From Candidatus Cloacimonadota bacterium (GTDB taxonomy: Bacteria; Cloacimonadota; Cloacimonadia; Cloacimonadales; TCS61), in assembly GCA_018645365.1 (NCBI GenBank), contig JABGOP010000011.1, positions 1-43,534 of the forward strand: DNA of 43,534 nucleotides, written 5' to 3'. The notes under the pieces were generated by a model, which saw only the letters and a list, made by a program, of their open reading frames with translations, ran no database searches and was not told the DNA's origin. Position numbers and translations under genes: made by a program. Shown piece after piece: positions 2,737-8,684 of the stretch. Each line of letters begins with the position of its first letter. Within the stretch, counting starts at the first letter, position 1.

Positions 2737-2856
2737 CTAAGGGAATTTTAGTTTACCAACAAAGATTACCATCTTTGCTTTTATAAAGATTAACATCTTT
2801 GCTTCTATAAAGATTAACATCTTTGCTTTTATAAAGATTAACATATTATTATTCAT
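2737..2856 (-). CDS. Possible 39-aa repeat peptide
   Basis: A minus-strand ATG at 2856 is preceded by AGAGGATGTAAAA, a usable Shine-Dalgarno, and opens a 39-codon frame ending in TAG at 2737. The product is MNNN, then three copies of the octapeptide MLIFIKAK (one with E for K), then MVIFVGKLKFP. The 24-bp repeat unit is exactly eight codons, so any frame stays open and the ORF may be a by-product of the repeat. The peptide is hydrophobic and basic. Expression is unproven. Confidence 0.25.
   Translation of the reverse strand: MNNNMLIFIKAKMLIFIEAKMLIFIKAKMVIFVGKLKFP
2761..2847. repeat. 24-bp tandem repeat, about 3.6 copies
   Basis: Units start at 2761, 2785, 2809 and 2833 (last one partial) and differ by one or two bases. 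Each unit contains the inverted repeat AAAGAT-TAAC-ATCTTT, so every copy can form a small hairpin. There are no variable spacers, so this is not a CRISPR array. Confidence 0.9.
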
Positions 2857-2990: not shown

Positions 2991-3025
2991 TGGTTTGTAT
3001 CCCCCCGCCAAAGCGGAGAGAGGGG
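2991..3025 (-). repeat. Palindromic hairpin repeat, copy A (eroded)
   Basis: It shares TGGTTTGTATC, the CCCCGCC half-site and the GAGAGGGGGA tail with copies B-D, but the stem is broken (CAAA loop, mismatches next to a 4-bp core). It lies downstream of the LytTR gene's stop codon on the coding strand. Confidence 0.7.
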
Positions 3026-3071
3026 GACAATTAACTGGTTTTAGGTTTCTTATGCTAAACAAAATCATCTA

Positions 3072-3422
3072 CTACTTAAAATATTCTATGATTTCTTGAA
3101 AGGTAGTTTTAGTTAATGGGATTTCCATACCATTTTCCATGGTGAGTAGATATTTCTTCCGAGTCAAAGGTCTGATTTTCTTTATCCTCTTCATATTGAT
3201 AATGTATGATTTGTGCGGTTTGATAAAGTAATTTGGTAATTCGTCTATGATGGAGCAAAGTGAACCAGTTAAGAGACAAGATCTTTTGGGATTAAAAATC
3301 CTAATGTACTCCTTTTCAGATGTTATTGCGATAATATGCTTTGTTTTGCAAAAGAGATATGAGTCATTATCCGATGCAACAATCAATTTAAGCTTTTTTG
3401 ATATTTTTAAGTTTTTATTCAT
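3072..3422 (-). CDS. Stand-alone LytTR-domain DNA-binding protein
   Basis: This 116-residue protein is essentially one LytTR domain. Residues 26-60 give the first strands (TKHIIAITSEKEYIRIF), followed by FIKPHKSYIINMKRIKKI and the end NGMEIPLTKTTFQEIIEYF, which match the family's conserved R/KxHRSYxVN and G..IPLS/T regions. LytTR domains bind direct repeats in promoters, usually as response-regulator outputs. Here there is no receiver or membrane domain, so the signal input must come from elsewhere. A good AGGAGG lies 16 nt before the ATG, which is too far to be ideal; a stop codon just upstream blocks a longer start. It sits between hairpin copies A and B and could regulate the neighbouring cassette genes. 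Confidence 0.8.
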   Translation of the reverse strand: MNKNLKISKKLKLIVASDNDSYLFCKTKHIIAITSEKEYIRIFNPKRSCLLTGSLCSIIDELPNYFIKPHKSYIINMKRIKKIRPLTRKKYLLTMENGMEIPLTKTTFQEIIEYFK

Positions 3423-3453
3423 TTTGTTGAGTGGCTATCCTCCTGCCTTATTC

Positions 3454-3491
3454 TTTGGTTTGTATCTCCCCGCCGTAGCGGGGAGAGGGGG
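3454..3491 (-). repeat. Palindromic hairpin repeat, copy B
   Basis: A perfect 9-bp stem (3465-3473 with 3478-3486) is preceded by TTGGTTTGTA. On the minus strand, which is the coding strand here, the loop is UACG closed by C-G, a UNCG-type tetraloop. It lies between the GIY-YIG-like stop (3502) and the LytTR start (3422). Confidence 0.85.
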
Positions 3492-3501
3492 AGTTGTTTC
3501 A

Positions 3502-3792
3502 TTAATTGTCTTCATTACCTTGTTTGTTATATTTTGGCTTAGTTCGTTTTATTATTCTGGTCTCTTTTTCTTTTGCTTCTGCGATTGAAGGCATTTGCTC
3601 AATTTCAACCTTTATACCTTTTATTTCTTCGCTATTCAGATGCTCTTTCAATCTTTCTTGAATTCTTCCTCGTTTTGCTACACCAACATAATTTGTAGTT
3701 CCTGCATTTGTTTTGATTTTATACAAAACTGGTTTATCCTTTGGTAATTTATCAATATTTGATACATTAAACTTAACTGTCTTTTTTCCCAT
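3502..3792 (-). CDS. GIY-YIG-like small protein
   Basis: This 96-residue protein has the order of elements of a minimal GIY-YIG nuclease fold: VLYKI (residues 22-26) in place of GIY, NYVG (34-37) in place of YIG, the basic helix AKRGRIQERLKEHL (39-52), a possible metal-binding Glu at 75 or 77, and the terminal PKYN (86-89). The family covers homing endonucleases, UvrC and repair or defence nucleases. The first motif is degenerate (LYK for GIY), so activity is uncertain. It is preceded by AAAAGGAGAAGG inside a two-hairpin leader almost identical to the one before the NACHT gene. It may be a defence or repair accessory protein. Confidence 0.65.
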   Translation of the reverse strand: MGKKTVKFNVSNIDKLPKDKPVLYKIKTNAGTTNYVGVAKRGRIQERLKEHLNSEEIKGIKVEIEQMPSIAEAKEKETRIIKRTKPKYNKQGNEDN

Positions 3793-3870
3793 CTTTCCTT
3801 CTCCTTTTATTGGTGGCTTTGTTTACAAAGCACCAACCGTGGTTTGTATCTCCCCGCCGTAGCGGGGAGA
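3793..3870 (-). promoter_or_regulatory. Two-hairpin leader before the GIY-YIG-like gene
   Basis: Read on the minus strand, it holds the UNCG-type hairpin, then a stem made of TTGGTGCTTTG and CAAAGCCACCAA with one bulged C and loop TAAA, then AUAAAAGGAGAAG and the ATG at 3792. A nearly identical copy lies at 6199-6273 before the unrelated NACHT gene. Confidence 0.75.
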
Positions 3871-3874
3871 GGGG
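3838..3874 (-). repeat. Palindromic hairpin repeat, copy C
   Basis: A perfect 9-bp stem (3849-3857 with 3862-3870) has loop UACG on the minus strand. It is preceded by GTGGTTTGTA and followed by GGGG on the plus strand. It lies between the NACHT stop (3925) and the GIY-YIG-like start (3792) and forms the upstream half of that gene's leader. Confidence 0.85.
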
Positions 3875-3924
3875 TTATCGCCAATCGATTGAACCGCTGA
3901 TATGTTTGTTAGGGGCATTTCAAG

Positions 3925-6198
3925 TTATGTTATTTTTTTTAAGGAAATTGCATTTTTATGCAAAGATTCAATATCTTTGTTTGGTAAATTGCTCAATCTT
4001 CGATGAATTCTTTTTACTTGTTTCTTTATAATCTTACTTGTATCTTTCAATTTATCTCCTTCGTAATAAAAACCAAATTGAAGATTTAATGGCAAATCCG
4101 TTTTATGATTACTTATAAGATATTCAAATGAGTCTGAATTCCCAAGTTCTAAAAAAACTAAACTAGAGAAAAATAAAGCATAAAGTTTTGTATCTTGTTC
4201 TTCTGAAGATTCTTCAATTTTTAAAATGGTAGCATCAAGTGCTTTTTCGAAATATTCATAAGAGTAACTTTCTCGTAATATGTATTGAATCCACCAAAGT
4301 AATGATATTTCAGATAAAAATCCAAAAGGAGAATCAATTTTCTTTCTTATAATATCCAGATAAAGTTTAGCTGCATATATCATTAGCTTAAACAAATTAT
4401 CCTCAACAATTATATAAGGAGTTGAATATCCAGCCAAGAAGTAATTTGACATATTAATCAATTTTAACCAAGCCTGAGACTCGTTTTTTGGATCAATACT
4501 GACAATATCTTGTAATAGTTCAGGACAATCCTGCTTCAGACCAATATAGAAAAAACAGATATTCATCCAATACAAATCGAAAGCTTTGTCATTGATTACT
4601 AGTGAATTTTCTTTATTTTTAGATTTGGCATAATAGTATTCTGCAAATGTTCTATGAGAGAACATAATTTCGTTTGTAATGTTATTTTTACTAAGAATAT
4701 TTGATCTTTTTATAACCTTATCATATAATTGTTTAGAACTTATTTCAGTATTTCTTTCAGAGAGATAATCATCGAAATAGGAAAAACACTCAGAATCTGA
4801 TATTGAAACAACATTTTCATCAATAAAATGTTCTGCTATGTTTGAAATAACTGTTTCAGATATTTGATATTCTTTTTGAGTTTCTAAATCTAAGTCTTTA
4901 TCAATGTCCCATCTCCCTAACATTAACTCAAGATATTTTGAGTATAACTCAGTCATATTTGCAGGTAAATCTTTTGTGTTTTCTTGCAATAATTTAGCAA
5001 GTAATATTGCAGCAATAGGGCTTCTAGGTAATTCTTTTAATAGAGTTGATTTTTTTAAATCCTCAAAAATCCTTTGGCTAATATTGATGGATTTACAAAT
5101 CTTTTCTAAAAATTCGATAGTTTTTTTTAAAGACAAAGGTGCAATTTCATATCTCTCACAAGAGCAAATTTCTGATTCTTTTTCAATAAAACCACTAAGA
5201 AATCTGGTTGTTAATATTATCTTTCTCTTTTCTGATGCTTGTTCAGAAATTTTATTCAATTCAGTTAATTTATCTTTCTCAGATAACTTTTCATCAAATC
5301 CATCAATCAGAATTACAAAATTGTTATCTAACAATTCTTTGTGTTGATAAGTATTGAGGAATGAAGTGATAGTATCATCAATTGAAGAATTGAATTTATC
5401 ATAAAAATCTACATAGCTCACAAATACTGGAATTCTCTCAAATTTAACATAATTGTCGATAGATGAATAATCTAAACATACTTTTCTTAACAATTTAGAT
5501 TTACCTGCACCCATACCTCCTTCTATCAACAAAAAATTATTATCTTCAATTTCTTTATTTATTATTAATTTTTTTCTTTTAGTATTTTCAGTATTATATT
5601 CATTTTCGTATTGTTTAAGTATTTCCTGCTCAATGTAAAATGAATTATTTTCAATTGTTACAAGTGATAAACTTCTATCAATATCTTGAATTTGTAAGTT
5701 TACTTTATTAATTAAATCACTTACTTCAATATCTATATCCATCCAATAATCTTGGATATGTTTATCAATTAGTTTTATTATTGAACTATCACGAATAAAT
5801 TTAATGTTTTTTGTTTTAAATTTATTATTTATTATTTTCTCAGCGTTGCTTGTAAAGCCTTCATTGGTTATGACCCAAATGACATTTAAACTAATTTGCT
5901 TTTTCCCATTAATAGCGAATCTATCAATATTACATTCACGAATCTGTTTATCAATACCATTGATTCTTGATTGGTTTATATTTCCAGTTTTAACAATTAC
6001 ACCAATGTATTCTGTTTCACAAAGAATATCATCAAGAGAAGTTAATACGAAATCAGCTCCTAGTTCATTTGAACCGTGAGTATAATCAACATTTTGAATT
6101 TTATCCATATTCTTAAAAAGTTGCTCTAAAACAGGATGAAATTCTTTTACTTCTTTAGACAATGAATTTATTTTACTTTTTTTTTCTTGATATTTCAT
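3925..6198 (-). CDS. NACHT-type NTPase with REase-like N-terminal domain
   Basis: This 757-residue protein looks like a STAND defence protein. Residues 1-150 form an alpha/beta domain with GADFVLT (D49) and YIGVIVKTG (K70) followed by a Q-rich helix, as in restriction-endonuclease-like (Mrr-type) N-termini; the usual E or Q two residues before the Lys is Ile, so catalysis is doubtful. The NACHT core has Walker A GGMGAGKS near residue 229, Walker B FVILIDGFDEK near 299 (the DGxDE form typical of NACHT) and a sensor-like KIILTTRF. About 350 helical C-terminal residues of no recognised family would be the sensor region. Known bacterial NACHT proteins give phage protection by oligomerising on a phage cue; the same role is inferred here. 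It is markedly AT-rich, has the two-hairpin leader, and lies in an accessory block. Confidence 0.75.
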   Translation of the reverse strand: MKYQEKKSKINSLSKEVKEFHPVLEQLFKNMDKIQNVDYTHGSNELGADFVLTSLDDILCETEYIGVIVKTGNINQSRINGIDKQIRECNIDRFAINGKKQISLNVIWVITNEGFTSNAEKIINNKFKTKNIKFIRDSSIIKLIDKHIQDYWMDIDIEVSDLINKVNLQIQDIDRSLSLVTIENNSFYIEQEILKQYENEYNTENTKRKKLIINKEIEDNNFLLIEGGMGAGKSKLLRKVCLDYSSIDNYVKFERIPVFVSYVDFYDKFNSSIDDTITSFLNTYQHKELLDNNFVILIDGFDEKLSEKDKLTELNKISEQASEKRKIILTTRFLSGFIEKESEICSCERYEIAPLSLKKTIEFLEKICKSINISQRIFEDLKKSTLLKELPRSPIAAILLAKLLQENTKDLPANMTELYSKYLELMLGRWDIDKDLDLETQKEYQISETVISNIAEHFIDENVVSISDSECFSYFDDYLSERNTEISSKQLYDKVIKRSNILSKNNITNEIMFSHRTFAEYYYAKSKNKENSLVINDKAFDLYWMNICFFYIGLKQDCPELLQDIVSIDPKNESQAWLKLINMSNYFLAGYSTPYIIVEDNLFKLMIYAAKLYLDIIRKKIDSPFGFLSEISLLWWIQYILRESYSYEYFEKALDATILKIEESSEEQDTKLYALFFSSLVFLELGNSDSFEYLISNHKTDLPLNLQFGFYYEGDKLKDTSKIIKKQVKRIHRRLSNLPNKDIESLHKNAISLKKIT

Positions 6199-6273
6199 CT
6201 CTTCTCCTTTTATTGGTGGCTTTGTTTACAAAGCACCAACTGTGATTTGTATCTCCCCGCCGAAGCGGGGAGA
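6199..6273 (-). promoter_or_regulatory. Two-hairpin leader before the NACHT gene
   Basis: It matches 3793-3870 over almost its whole length (UNCG hairpin, TTGGTGCTTTGT-type hairpin, AAAAGGAGAAG Shine-Dalgarno) and ends at the ATG at 6198. The few differences include UUCG against UACG in the tetraloop, both members of the UNCG class. Confidence 0.75.
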
Positions 6274-6276
6274 GTT
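6241..6276 (-). repeat. Palindromic hairpin repeat, copy D
   Basis: The 9-bp stem (6252-6260 with 6265-6273) carries a UUCG loop closed by C-G on the minus strand. On the plus strand it is followed by seven T, so this copy alone also looks like a plus-strand terminator. A weaker related palindrome follows at about 6283-6307. Confidence 0.85.
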
Positions 6277-6319: not shown

Positions 6320-7060
6320 TTAATTAGCTTCGCTGGTTTCACTGCGTTCAGTTCCTAATTCTGTCTCTTCTCCTGGTTCGCCTATTGCAAAGCTAAAAGT
6401 AGCACCGTAGGTTCGCATAATGCGTCTTTGGCTCGGTGCATCTTTTTTTCTTAGCGTAAAGCGAAGTTCGTCCATCACCTCTTGAATGAGAGAATCTGCT
6501 GGTGCACGCAAATCAGCAATTTCTTCTTGTGCTTCATCATACTTTCTGTCTGCGATTGCCACATCGTCATATTCTGCCAAAGCAATTGTAAGCATTTCGT
6601 TAACTTCTAATGCAGTTGGGTTTTCGATGGCATCATAACCCGCCGCCACCGCCGCCACATCACCCTCAATCACTTTTTTTGCTATTGTTAACCACGCACC
6701 ATTGGTGGTTAGGTTCGGCGTTACGCCGTCCAATGGCAATTGGTAGAAAGAAAATACTTCCGCTGGCTCATTAAGTCGGTACACTCTTCTTTTCAAAACA
6801 GCCCAAAGGTCGCGAGTATATGTAGATAATTTTTCGATGGCAGCTTGTTGTTCGCGTACCTCTTTGGCTCTACCACTCAATTTTTTGTTAATAGCAATAA
6901 GCTTTGTTTCAAAATTGGGCAATAGTATAGAAATCTCATCAATTAAACTTTGAGAGATATACGGGTTACCTGCGGCAATGTCTTGTTCAGCTGTAATCTT
7001 TGCTTGTCTCATAAAAGACATCCTCGCATCATCACTTCTAGGTTTCTGATAGATAGGCAT
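6320..7060 (-). CDS. Unknown 246-aa cytoplasmic protein
   Basis: I do not recognise this family. There is no signal peptide or membrane segment. Residues 1-80 are helical and charged (KPRSDDARMSFM, then LIDEISILLPNFE and SGRAKEVREQQAAIEKL), the middle is Ala-rich (VAAVAAGYDAI), and a conserved-looking tail has APSQRRIMRTYGATFSF followed by an acidic end with repeated E/T/S. It is richer in G and C than the neighbouring NACHT gene. The start at 7060 has AAGGAGG a few bases before it, in the leader CCAAGGAGGATAAA also seen at the left edge of the window. The upstream region is a 42-bp minisatellite, so its promoter must lie within or beyond that repeat. Confidence 0.75.
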   Translation of the reverse strand: MPIYQKPRSDDARMSFMRQAKITAEQDIAAGNPYISQSLIDEISILLPNFETKLIAINKKLSGRAKEVREQQAAIEKLSTYTRDLWAVLKRRVYRLNEPAEVFSFYQLPLDGVTPNLTTNGAWLTIAKKVIEGDVAAVAAGYDAIENPTALEVNEMLTIALAEYDDVAIADRKYDEAQEEIADLRAPADSLIQEVMDELRFTLRKKDAPSQRRIMRTYGATFSFAIGEPGEETELGTERSETSEAN

Positions 7061-7424
7061 AATTTATCCTCCTTGGTTTTTTTATGCACCTTACATCAAT
7101 TTTAGTTGACTCAGAAATCGATACTCAGAGCTCTAGGACTACATTTCTCTGCTCGGAAATCGATACTCAGAGCTCTAGGACTACATTTCTCTGCTCGGAA
7201 ATCGATACTCAGAGACATAGGACTCCATTTCTCTGCTCAGAAATCGATACTCAGAGCTCTAGGACTACATTTCTCTGCTCGGAAATCGATACTCAGAGCT
7301 CTAGGACTCCATTTCTCTGCTCAGAAATCGACACTCAGAGCAGTTAATTGCGTCATTGTTTCACTAATGTTTGATTTATGTAGATAAACACTAGATAAAA
7401 CAGGCTTGTTACTTTTGCTTGGGA
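7061..7424. other. Intergenic stretch dominated by a minisatellite
   Basis: There is no supported gene here. Bases 7110-7341 are the 42-bp tandem repeat; the plus-strand open frames across it are products of the repeat (14 codons per unit, no ribosome-binding site). Bases 7342-7424 show no feature I can name. Confidence 0.75.
7110..7341. repeat. 42-bp tandem repeat, 5.5 copies
   Basis: Units begin at 7110, 7152, 7194, 7236, 7278 and 7320 (last partial) and are nearly identical; small differences alternate (CTCAG/CTCGG, CTACA/CTCCA) and unit 3 has GACATAG for GCTCTAG. Each unit carries the palindromes ATCGAT and AGAGCTCT. Such high identity implies recent expansion or homogenisation. Confidence 0.95.
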
Positions 7425-7733: not shown

Positions 7734-8684
7734 TTATAGTGTTTTATCCTCCAAAAAATTGAAAATTTTTTTCGCCTCTTTTTTGCTTTGTACATGTAAT
7801 CCTTTTCGTTTTACGCGAAATTCATCCATCAAAGTTACATCTTCAGATTCTAACTTTAAGGGTGGTTGTAAGTAAAACTTTGTTATCACAATTTCACTAA
7901 GCTGATTGGTCTTAAAATCTAAAAAACAAAAATTTATGGTGCCTTGGGAATTTTCATAGGGGATATAGACATCATAGCTACCATTTGCAAGTAGGTGAAT
8001 GTTATAGGTGAATGTTTCCACAATGTCGAGTTGGGGAATTTTGTCAGTATCTATTTTCCGAAAGTAGTTATGCATCGAGGCGAGTCTATTTTCTTTCATT
8101 TTTTTTACTAATTTATTGATAAAAATTAGAATTTTACGGTGCATATAAAAATCAACAATTTTTCTAGAACCACCGTAGCCCTCTTTACGATATTTGGCAG
8201 CACTGAGATTTCTTTTCATACGATGCGTAGCACCATAAACATAGGATGTAGATTTATTTAGTTTCCCGGCAATTTTGCCAGAGTCATGGTTATATTTCAG
8301 TGCCAGCTGGTAGAGTTGAAAGTCTTTTGGAGAAAGCAGCTCTTTGACTTCTTTCAAATCAACCGCTTCAATGCCAATAATATCTTCTTGTTTGATGCTG
8401 TTATTATATTGTATAACTTCTATCTTTCCCATATCGCCGTAAGAGATGTTCCGTCTTTTGGCATAATCTATTGCTTCATTATGTGCAGTTCTATTTACCC
8501 ATGCTTGTGAGTTTTCGATGGAGTCTATATTTTGCAGATACTTCATGCATACGGTTTGGGCTACATCTTCGGCATCATCTCTGTTTTTGAGAATTCTTTG
8601 TGCAACTCTTAAGGCAATCAGGCGTAAATCATAATAGATTTTTTCTATTTCAATGTCACTTAACTTCGATAGATTTGCCCCCAT
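7734..8684 (-). CDS. ECF-type sigma factor with long C-terminal extension
   Basis: This 316-residue protein has sigma-70 region 2 at about residues 25-80 (ALRVAQRILKNRDDAEDVAQ, then AWVNRTAHNEAIDYAKRR) and a region 4 helix-turn-helix at about 115-160 (FQLYQLALKYNHDSGKIAGK). A typical ECF factor ends near residue 180; here about 150 more residues follow, with a basic segment and a beta-rich part (YDVYIPYENSQGTINFCFLDF) that I do not recognise. Such extensions often sense signals or replace an anti-sigma factor, and no anti-sigma gene is nearby. AGGAGG lies 5 nt before the ATG. The promoter block upstream is shared with the gene starting at 10295, suggesting common control, perhaps by this factor itself. 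Confidence 0.8.
   Translation of the reverse strand: MGANLSKLSDIEIEKIYYDLRLIALRVAQRILKNRDDAEDVAQTVCMKYLQNIDSIENSQAWVNRTAHNEAIDYAKRRNISYGDMGKIEVIQYNNSIKQEDIIGIEAVDLKEVKELLSPKDFQLYQLALKYNHDSGKIAGKLNKSTSYVYGATHRMKRNLSAAKYRKEGYGGSRKIVDFYMHRKILIFINKLVKKMKENRLASMHNYFRKIDTDKIPQLDIVETFTYNIHLLANGSYDVYIPYENSQGTINFCFLDFKTNQLSEIVITKFYLQPPLKLESEDVTLMDEFRVKRKGLHVQSKKEAKKIFNFLEDKTL

What the first reader, a model, noticed from the sequence alone, without database searches (positions are those of the whole stretch)
2991..6276. Three accessory genes separated and flanked by copies of one RNA-style hairpin
The order on the minus strand is hairpin D, NACHT, hairpin C, GIY-YIG-like, hairpin B, LytTR, hairpin A. 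B, C and D have perfect 9-bp stems; the loops on the coding strand are UUCG or UACG closed by C-G, that is UNCG tetraloops that differ only at the free N position, while A is eroded. This argues that the structure is kept at the RNA level on the gene strand, not just as a DNA palindrome. Seen directly: stems, loops and gene order. Inferred: the genes came as cassettes sharing this element, or the hairpins act as processing or terminator sites between cistrons. I know no described system with this layout.
Basis: partly seen in the sequence, partly recalled or inferred. Interest (0 to 1): 0.72.

Follow-up and report, generated by a model that had tools for sequence, protein, structure and literature searches.

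The report
Repeated RNA hairpin before accessory genes
A short hairpin sequence is repeated seven times in this bacterium's genome, always just upstream of a gene and four times around a small foreign-looking defence-type gene cluster; it looks like a modest, species-specific repeat that is probably read into RNA, not a new genetic system.

Summary
Four copies of one stem-loop lie at 3000-3021, 3465-3486, 3849-3870 and 6252-6273, around and between a LytTR, a GIY-YIG and a NACHT gene, all read on the minus strand. Three more copies lie elsewhere in the genome, upstream of genes for secreted proteins, so the element is not tied to accessory genes. All seven point the same way relative to the next gene. 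Six of seven have a UNCG loop on the gene strand (UUCG x3, UACG x2, UGCG x1). The 'eroded' copy A still pairs 9 of 9 on that strand through two G-U wobbles, but only 4 on the other. There is no U-tract on the gene strand, no covariation, and no relative in the databases searched. The copies come from only about four independent contexts, so the orientation and loop arguments are suggestive, not strong. Best reading: a low-copy, species-specific interspersed hairpin, copied with short 5'-leader segments and probably acting, if at all, as an RNA processing or stability barrier. An inert REP-like repeat is the close rival; the cassette idea is weak.

The parts
3000..3021 (-). Hairpin A: TCTCTCCGC-TTTG-GCGGGGGGA on the gene strand; 9 of 9 pairs with two G-U; downstream of LytTR
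3465..3486 (-). Hairpin B: perfect 9-bp stem, loop UACG; 15 nt after the GIY-YIG stop codon and 42 nt before the LytTR start
3849..3870 (-). Hairpin C: perfect 9-bp stem, loop UACG; 54 nt after the NACHT stop and 56 nt before the GIY-YIG start
6252..6273 (-). Hairpin D: perfect 9-bp stem, loop UUCG; 53 nt before the NACHT start
3798..3871 (-). 74-nt leader of the GIY-YIG gene: hairpin C, ATACAAA, second inverted repeat (3810-3836), Shine-Dalgarno
   Evidence: 96% identical to 6201-6274
6201..6274 (-). 74-nt leader of the NACHT gene: hairpin D, ATACAAA, second inverted repeat (6213-6239), Shine-Dalgarno
3072..3422 (-). LytTR-domain protein, 116 aa
   Evidence: Pfam LytTR 67 bits; best match in 59 relatives 28% identity
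3502..3792 (-). Small GIY-YIG domain protein, 96 aa
   Evidence: Pfam GIY-YIG 25 bits; 57-61% homologues only in two distant genomes
3925..6198 (-). NACHT/NLR-like protein, 757 aa, probable defence type (activity inferred)
   Evidence: NCH1 148 bits, NPHP3_N 27.9 bits above its cut-off, NACHT and NB-ARC below theirs; 33-34% homologues over most of the length on plasmids and a phage-type contig

Best explanation
The hairpins are one low-copy, species-specific interspersed element of about 29-35 nt, on the gene strand CTCTCCCCGC-UNCG-GCGGGGAGAUACAAA. Its copies travelled as parts of short 5'-leader segments (shown for C/D and for C10/C15/C30 by shared flanks). In the cluster it lies in the gaps between closely spaced same-strand genes and is probably transcribed with them (inferred). 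As RNA it forms a very stable capped stem upstream of the next ribosome-binding site. The likely effect is that of an mRNA-decay barrier or processing boundary that gives each downstream cistron its own protected 5' end (inferred). That the three genes are horizontally acquired is supported by their absence from relatives.
For: Seven copies, all in one orientation to the next gene. One copy (C30) lies between divergent genes, so the element goes with the downstream gene's 5' side there. UNCG loops in 6 of 7 on the gene strand. A keeps 9/9 pairs on the gene strand through G-U, against 4 on the other. Strong folds, z about -5.4 to -5.6 for B, C, D. The 74-nt module of C and D runs from the hairpin to the Shine-Dalgarno and identity drops outside it. 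B sits in a 79-nt intercistronic gap, 15 nt after a stop codon and 42 nt before a start. Intercistronic hairpins of this type are known to stabilise downstream cistrons, e.g. papBA (PMC5927463).
Against: No compensatory changes and covariation no better than shuffles. About four independent contexts only. No transcript data. In the leader2 group the hairpin lies about 95-150 nt upstream of the start codon and may be outside the mRNA if a promoter lies between. No conservation outside this genome, so selection cannot be shown.
Confidence: 0.42

Rival explanations
1. An inert or selfish small interspersed palindrome (REP/MITE-like) without function, multiplied by past transposition or recombination; orientation and loop pattern reflect common descent of a few copies.
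For: Species-specific, few copies, no covariation. The genome holds other intergenic repeats (leader2, tandem arrays). Two of seven copies are degraded (A loop, C30 5' arm). Small repeats of this sort are common in bacteria (PMC3733652, PMC3049150).
Against: Same orientation to the downstream gene in 7 of 7. The changes in A keep pairing on the gene strand only. No target-site duplication seen by eye at the C and D module edges. No dedicated transposase: the only Y1_Tnp domain is fused inside a methylase gene on C23, where no copy lies.
Confidence: 0.4
2. Intrinsic terminators or attenuators at the ends of the preceding genes.
For: Five of seven copies lie 15-54 nt after a same-strand stop codon.
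Against: No U-tract after the stem on the gene strand in any copy; D and C10 have a T-run on the opposite strand only. Other strong palindromes in this genome have A/T tracts on both sides, as terminators do. C30 has no upstream same-strand gene next to it.
Confidence: 0.1
3. Cassette boundaries: recombination sites (integron attC-like or other single-strand hairpins) by which the three genes were inserted one by one.
For: Three genes without close relatives in the family, same orientation, a hairpin at each boundary, C and D leaders nearly identical.
Against: Three copies precede secreted-protein genes elsewhere. B lacks the leader. The NACHT homologue loci read (two plasmids, one phage-type contig) have no GIY-YIG or LytTR neighbour. 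No attC-type core sites seen by eye. The integrase content of the genome was not searched.
Confidence: 0.05

Closest known systems
REP elements and RAYT-associated palindromes (GTAG and CGTC super-families; PMC3733652, PMC2817692)
   Same: Short GC-rich palindrome, intergenic, repeated within one genome, species-specific, probably transcribed
   Different: No GTAG or CGTC tag (the unpaired side reads GTAT), 7 copies instead of tens to hundreds, no RAYT gene flanked by it, always in one orientation to the next gene
Intercistronic mRNA stability hairpins (papBA, puf; cited in PMC5927463)
   Same: Stable stem between cistrons upstream of the next gene's ribosome-binding site
   Different: Those are operon-specific structures with measured effects; here one sequence is reused at seven places and no effect is measured
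Pneumococcal BOX and RUP repeats (PMC3049150)
   Same: Small interspersed repeats forming stem-loops if transcribed; BOX is modular, as is the hairpin plus second inverted repeat here
   Different: Many more copies (70 BOX and 65 RUP listed upstream of at least one gene in one genome) and BOX termini resemble those of an insertion sequence; no sequence relation was tested
Bacterial NACHT (NLR-like) defence genes (PMC12169576)
   Same: The 757-aa protein has the NCH1 domain and homologues on plasmids and a phage-type contig
   Different: Not tested for defence; GIY-YIG and LytTR neighbours are not part of a described system and were not seen in the homologue loci read

Membership tests
REP (GTAG/CGTC super-families) | GTAG (or GTGG) or CGTC tetranucleotide at one end of the palindrome | tested here: not met
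   The side opposite the gene reads TTTGTATC in six of seven copies
REP (GTAG/CGTC super-families) | High copy number | tested here: not met
   7 copies in 1.79 Mb
REP (GTAG/CGTC super-families) | Cognate RAYT gene flanked by the repeat (GTAG type) | tested here: not met
   Only one Y1_Tnp domain in the genome, inside a methylase ORF on C23, where no copy lies
Intrinsic terminator | GC-rich stem followed by a U-tract on the transcribed strand | tested here: not met
   No U-tract on the gene strand in any of seven copies; T-run on the opposite strand in D and C10
Intercistronic mRNA stability hairpin | Stem located between co-directional cistrons | tested here: met
   B and C lie between co-directional genes with gaps of 79 and 132 nt
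Intercistronic mRNA stability hairpin | Co-transcription and a measured change in mRNA half-life | not testable with these tools
   No transcript data
Integron cassette (attC) | RYYYAAC and GTTRRRY core sites at the ends of the hairpin | tested here: inconclusive
   Read by eye in the C and D modules only, none seen; no dedicated search was run
Bacterial NACHT defence protein | NACHT-type NTPase with C-terminal helical domain | tested here: met
   NCH1 148 bits; NACHT itself below its cut-off at 20.8 bits; homologues annotated NACHT on plasmids
Bacterial NACHT defence protein | Protection against phage | not testable with these tools
   Only a weak PADLOC match (mads_8)

The most novel reading that the evidence does not exclude
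The hairpin plus second inverted repeat plus Shine-Dalgarno (74 nt) is a portable 5'-leader that foreign genes acquire on entering this genome, giving each captured gene an insulated, self-stabilised transcript.
Probability: 0.08. Interest if true: 0.6.

Novelty: new member of a known kind. Interest (0 to 1): 0.3.

Why it matters
If the hairpins are read into RNA and control decay, this would be a small repeat reused as a portable mRNA insulator next to a horizontally acquired defence-type cluster. If not, it is one more species-specific interspersed palindrome. Either way, the seven copies and the two duplicated leaders give a compact natural test set.

Tried and rejected
Exact-pattern scans of one genome for each of 84,980 species and of IMG/VR for CCCCGCNNNNGCGGGGAGATACAAA: nothing. 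A looser stem pattern in viral contigs gave ten hairpins without the ATACAAA tail. Hairpin searches in relatives (58 and 98 genomes besides this one): other GC palindromes, none with the stem and tail together, and nothing in the two same-genus genomes. Rfam: no credible match. Link between the 246-aa gene upstream of D and the gene upstream of the C10 copy: no similarity. LytTR half-site at the leaders: one match in D only, near what chance gives, and no second half-site. Matches to leader2 in other species were short and AT-rich, without its TTTGACAGAAAG core. NACHT relatives in genome contigs by short peptides: none confirmed.

Full report
OBSERVATION. The four stem-loops are at 3000-3021 (A), 3465-3486 (B), 3849-3870 (C) and 6252-6273 (D). 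B, C and D are perfect 9-bp stems. Markov simulations of the window produced no such GC-rich 9-bp, 4-loop palindrome in 200 runs; the window has one other, terminator-like, at 132-153. Folds on the gene strand beat dinucleotide shuffles by z of about -5.4 to -5.6 for B, C and D.

GENOME CENSUS. The genome (1.79 Mb, 59 contigs, about 97% complete) holds seven copies: the four here and one each on contigs C10 (7742-7763), C15 (31074-31095) and C30 (about 7826-7851, 5' arm truncated). The gene-strand core is CTCTCCCCGC-TNCG-GCGGGGAGATACAAA. Loops on the gene strand: UUUG (A), UACG (B, C), UUCG (D, C10, C15), UGCG (C30). In all seven the next gene on the ATACAAA side is read away from the hairpin; for A this is a 39-aa ORF at 2737-2856 or the gene at 166-2568. 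The C30 copy lies between divergently read genes, so at least there it cannot be the 3' end of an upstream gene.

WHAT TRAVELS WITH IT. C and D share 74 nt at 96% identity: hairpin, ATACAAA, a second inverted repeat (3810-3836 and 6213-6239) and the Shine-Dalgarno. Outside this module identity drops, to 37% over the 60 nt upstream. C10, C15 and C30 share a different leader (leader2, 81-93%); it precedes genes for proteins with a Por_Secre_tail sorting domain (in C10 a short ORF lies between) and occurs four more times without the hairpin. So the hairpin is separable from either leader. The seven copies amount to about four independent contexts: A, B, C/D and C10/C15/C30.

STRAND ARGUMENT. For RNA on the gene strand: UNCG loops in six of seven with three different bases at N; copy A keeps all nine pairs through two G-U wobbles, -13.6 kcal/mol against -6.0 on the other strand, where four pairs survive. 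With RNA letters, the model gives gene-strand loops UACG/UGCG -19.3 and UUCG -18.4 kcal/mol against -17.5 for their complements in the same stem (the per-copy values of -17.5 for both strands in that call were computed with T in place of U and miss the loop bonus). Against: no compensatory changes, and the covariation score is no better than shuffles. In its longer context A also has another fold of similar or better energy. A single stem substitution keeps pairing on a given strand in 9 of 54 cases, or 9 of 18 among transitions, so copy A alone is worth about 1/36 to 1/4. Orientation over four contexts is worth about 1/8. This is suggestive only.

TERMINATORS. No copy has a U-tract on the gene strand. 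D and C10 have one on the opposite strand. Terminator-like palindromes in the stretches read look different, with A/T tracts on both sides.

THE GENES. The three genes have no close relatives in the family. NACHT is missing from 195 other genomes; 33-34% homologues lie on a Pseudomonas and an Enterobacter plasmid and on a viral contig, downstream of what I read as a terminase gene. GIY-YIG has 57-61% homologues only in two distant genomes. LytTR has at best a 28% match. The NACHT homologue loci examined have no neighbouring GIY-YIG or LytTR gene, so there is no evidence of a conserved three-gene system. The NACHT protein resembles bacterial NLR-like defence proteins (NCH1 domain; PMC12169576 for the family); its activity is inferred from family.

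DISTRIBUTION. No copy was found in the two same-genus genomes or the other relatives, nor by exact pattern in the species genomes or IMG/VR. The element is specific to this species as far as could be searched; very near strains may be left out of those collections.

MECHANISM. Shown: a repeated, stable, directional stem-loop, twice duplicated with leaders. Inferred: it is transcribed in the cluster (B lies in a 79-nt gap between cistrons, 42 nt before the LytTR start) and acts as a decay barrier or processing boundary, as known for papBA (PMC5927463). The close rival is an inert REP/MITE-like repeat; formal REP membership fails on tag, copy number and RAYT association (PMC3733652, PMC2817692). 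Cassette and terminator readings are unlikely.

VERDICT. Observation confirmed and refined, interpretation partly supported, novelty modest.

Noticed in passing
G000 contig C23, about 257096-260284 (L060 1-3189): The only Y1_Tnp (REP-associated transposase type) domain found in the genome lies in frame inside an Eco57I/TaqI_C-type adenine methylase ORF (stop-free frame 1245 codons), between its DPACGSGAF and NPPY motifs. A search for papers on such a fusion gave nothing to the point.
   Followed up: partly
L060, in the same ORF, e.g. palindrome at 1783-1804: In-frame short peptide repeats (GHVPLSK, AEVPLST, VNVPLSK; AEPTKGHVDAELTRGHVPLSK), with a DNA palindrome ACAAGGGGACATGTCCCCTTGT, as if small palindromic repeats had been inserted in coding sequence.
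   Followed up: no
window 2761-2844 and 7110-7341; L024 4734-5028; L025 4932-5021: Tandem arrays with periods 24, 42, 21 and 21 nt, all multiples of three, lie within about 1 kb of hairpin copies; the two in the window flank the accessory cluster.
   Followed up: partly
window 2737-2856, minus strand; L049: A 39-aa ORF, MNNN then MLIFIKAK-type units then MVIFVGKLKFP, made by the 24-nt array; a one-unit version MNNMLIFIGKLKFP can be read on contig C27 upstream of a leader2 gene.
   Followed up: partly
C15, C10, C30, C23, C27, C45, C4 (L045-L051): A repeated 5' region, leader2 (core TATTTGACAGAAAG), seven copies at 80-93% identity, several upstream of genes for secreted proteins; three of them abut the hairpin.
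   Followed up: partly
window 6320-7060, minus strand: A 246-aa protein of unknown family directly upstream of hairpin D, with two 40-42% homologues in one other genome of the family (G008) and no Pfam match.
   Followed up: partly
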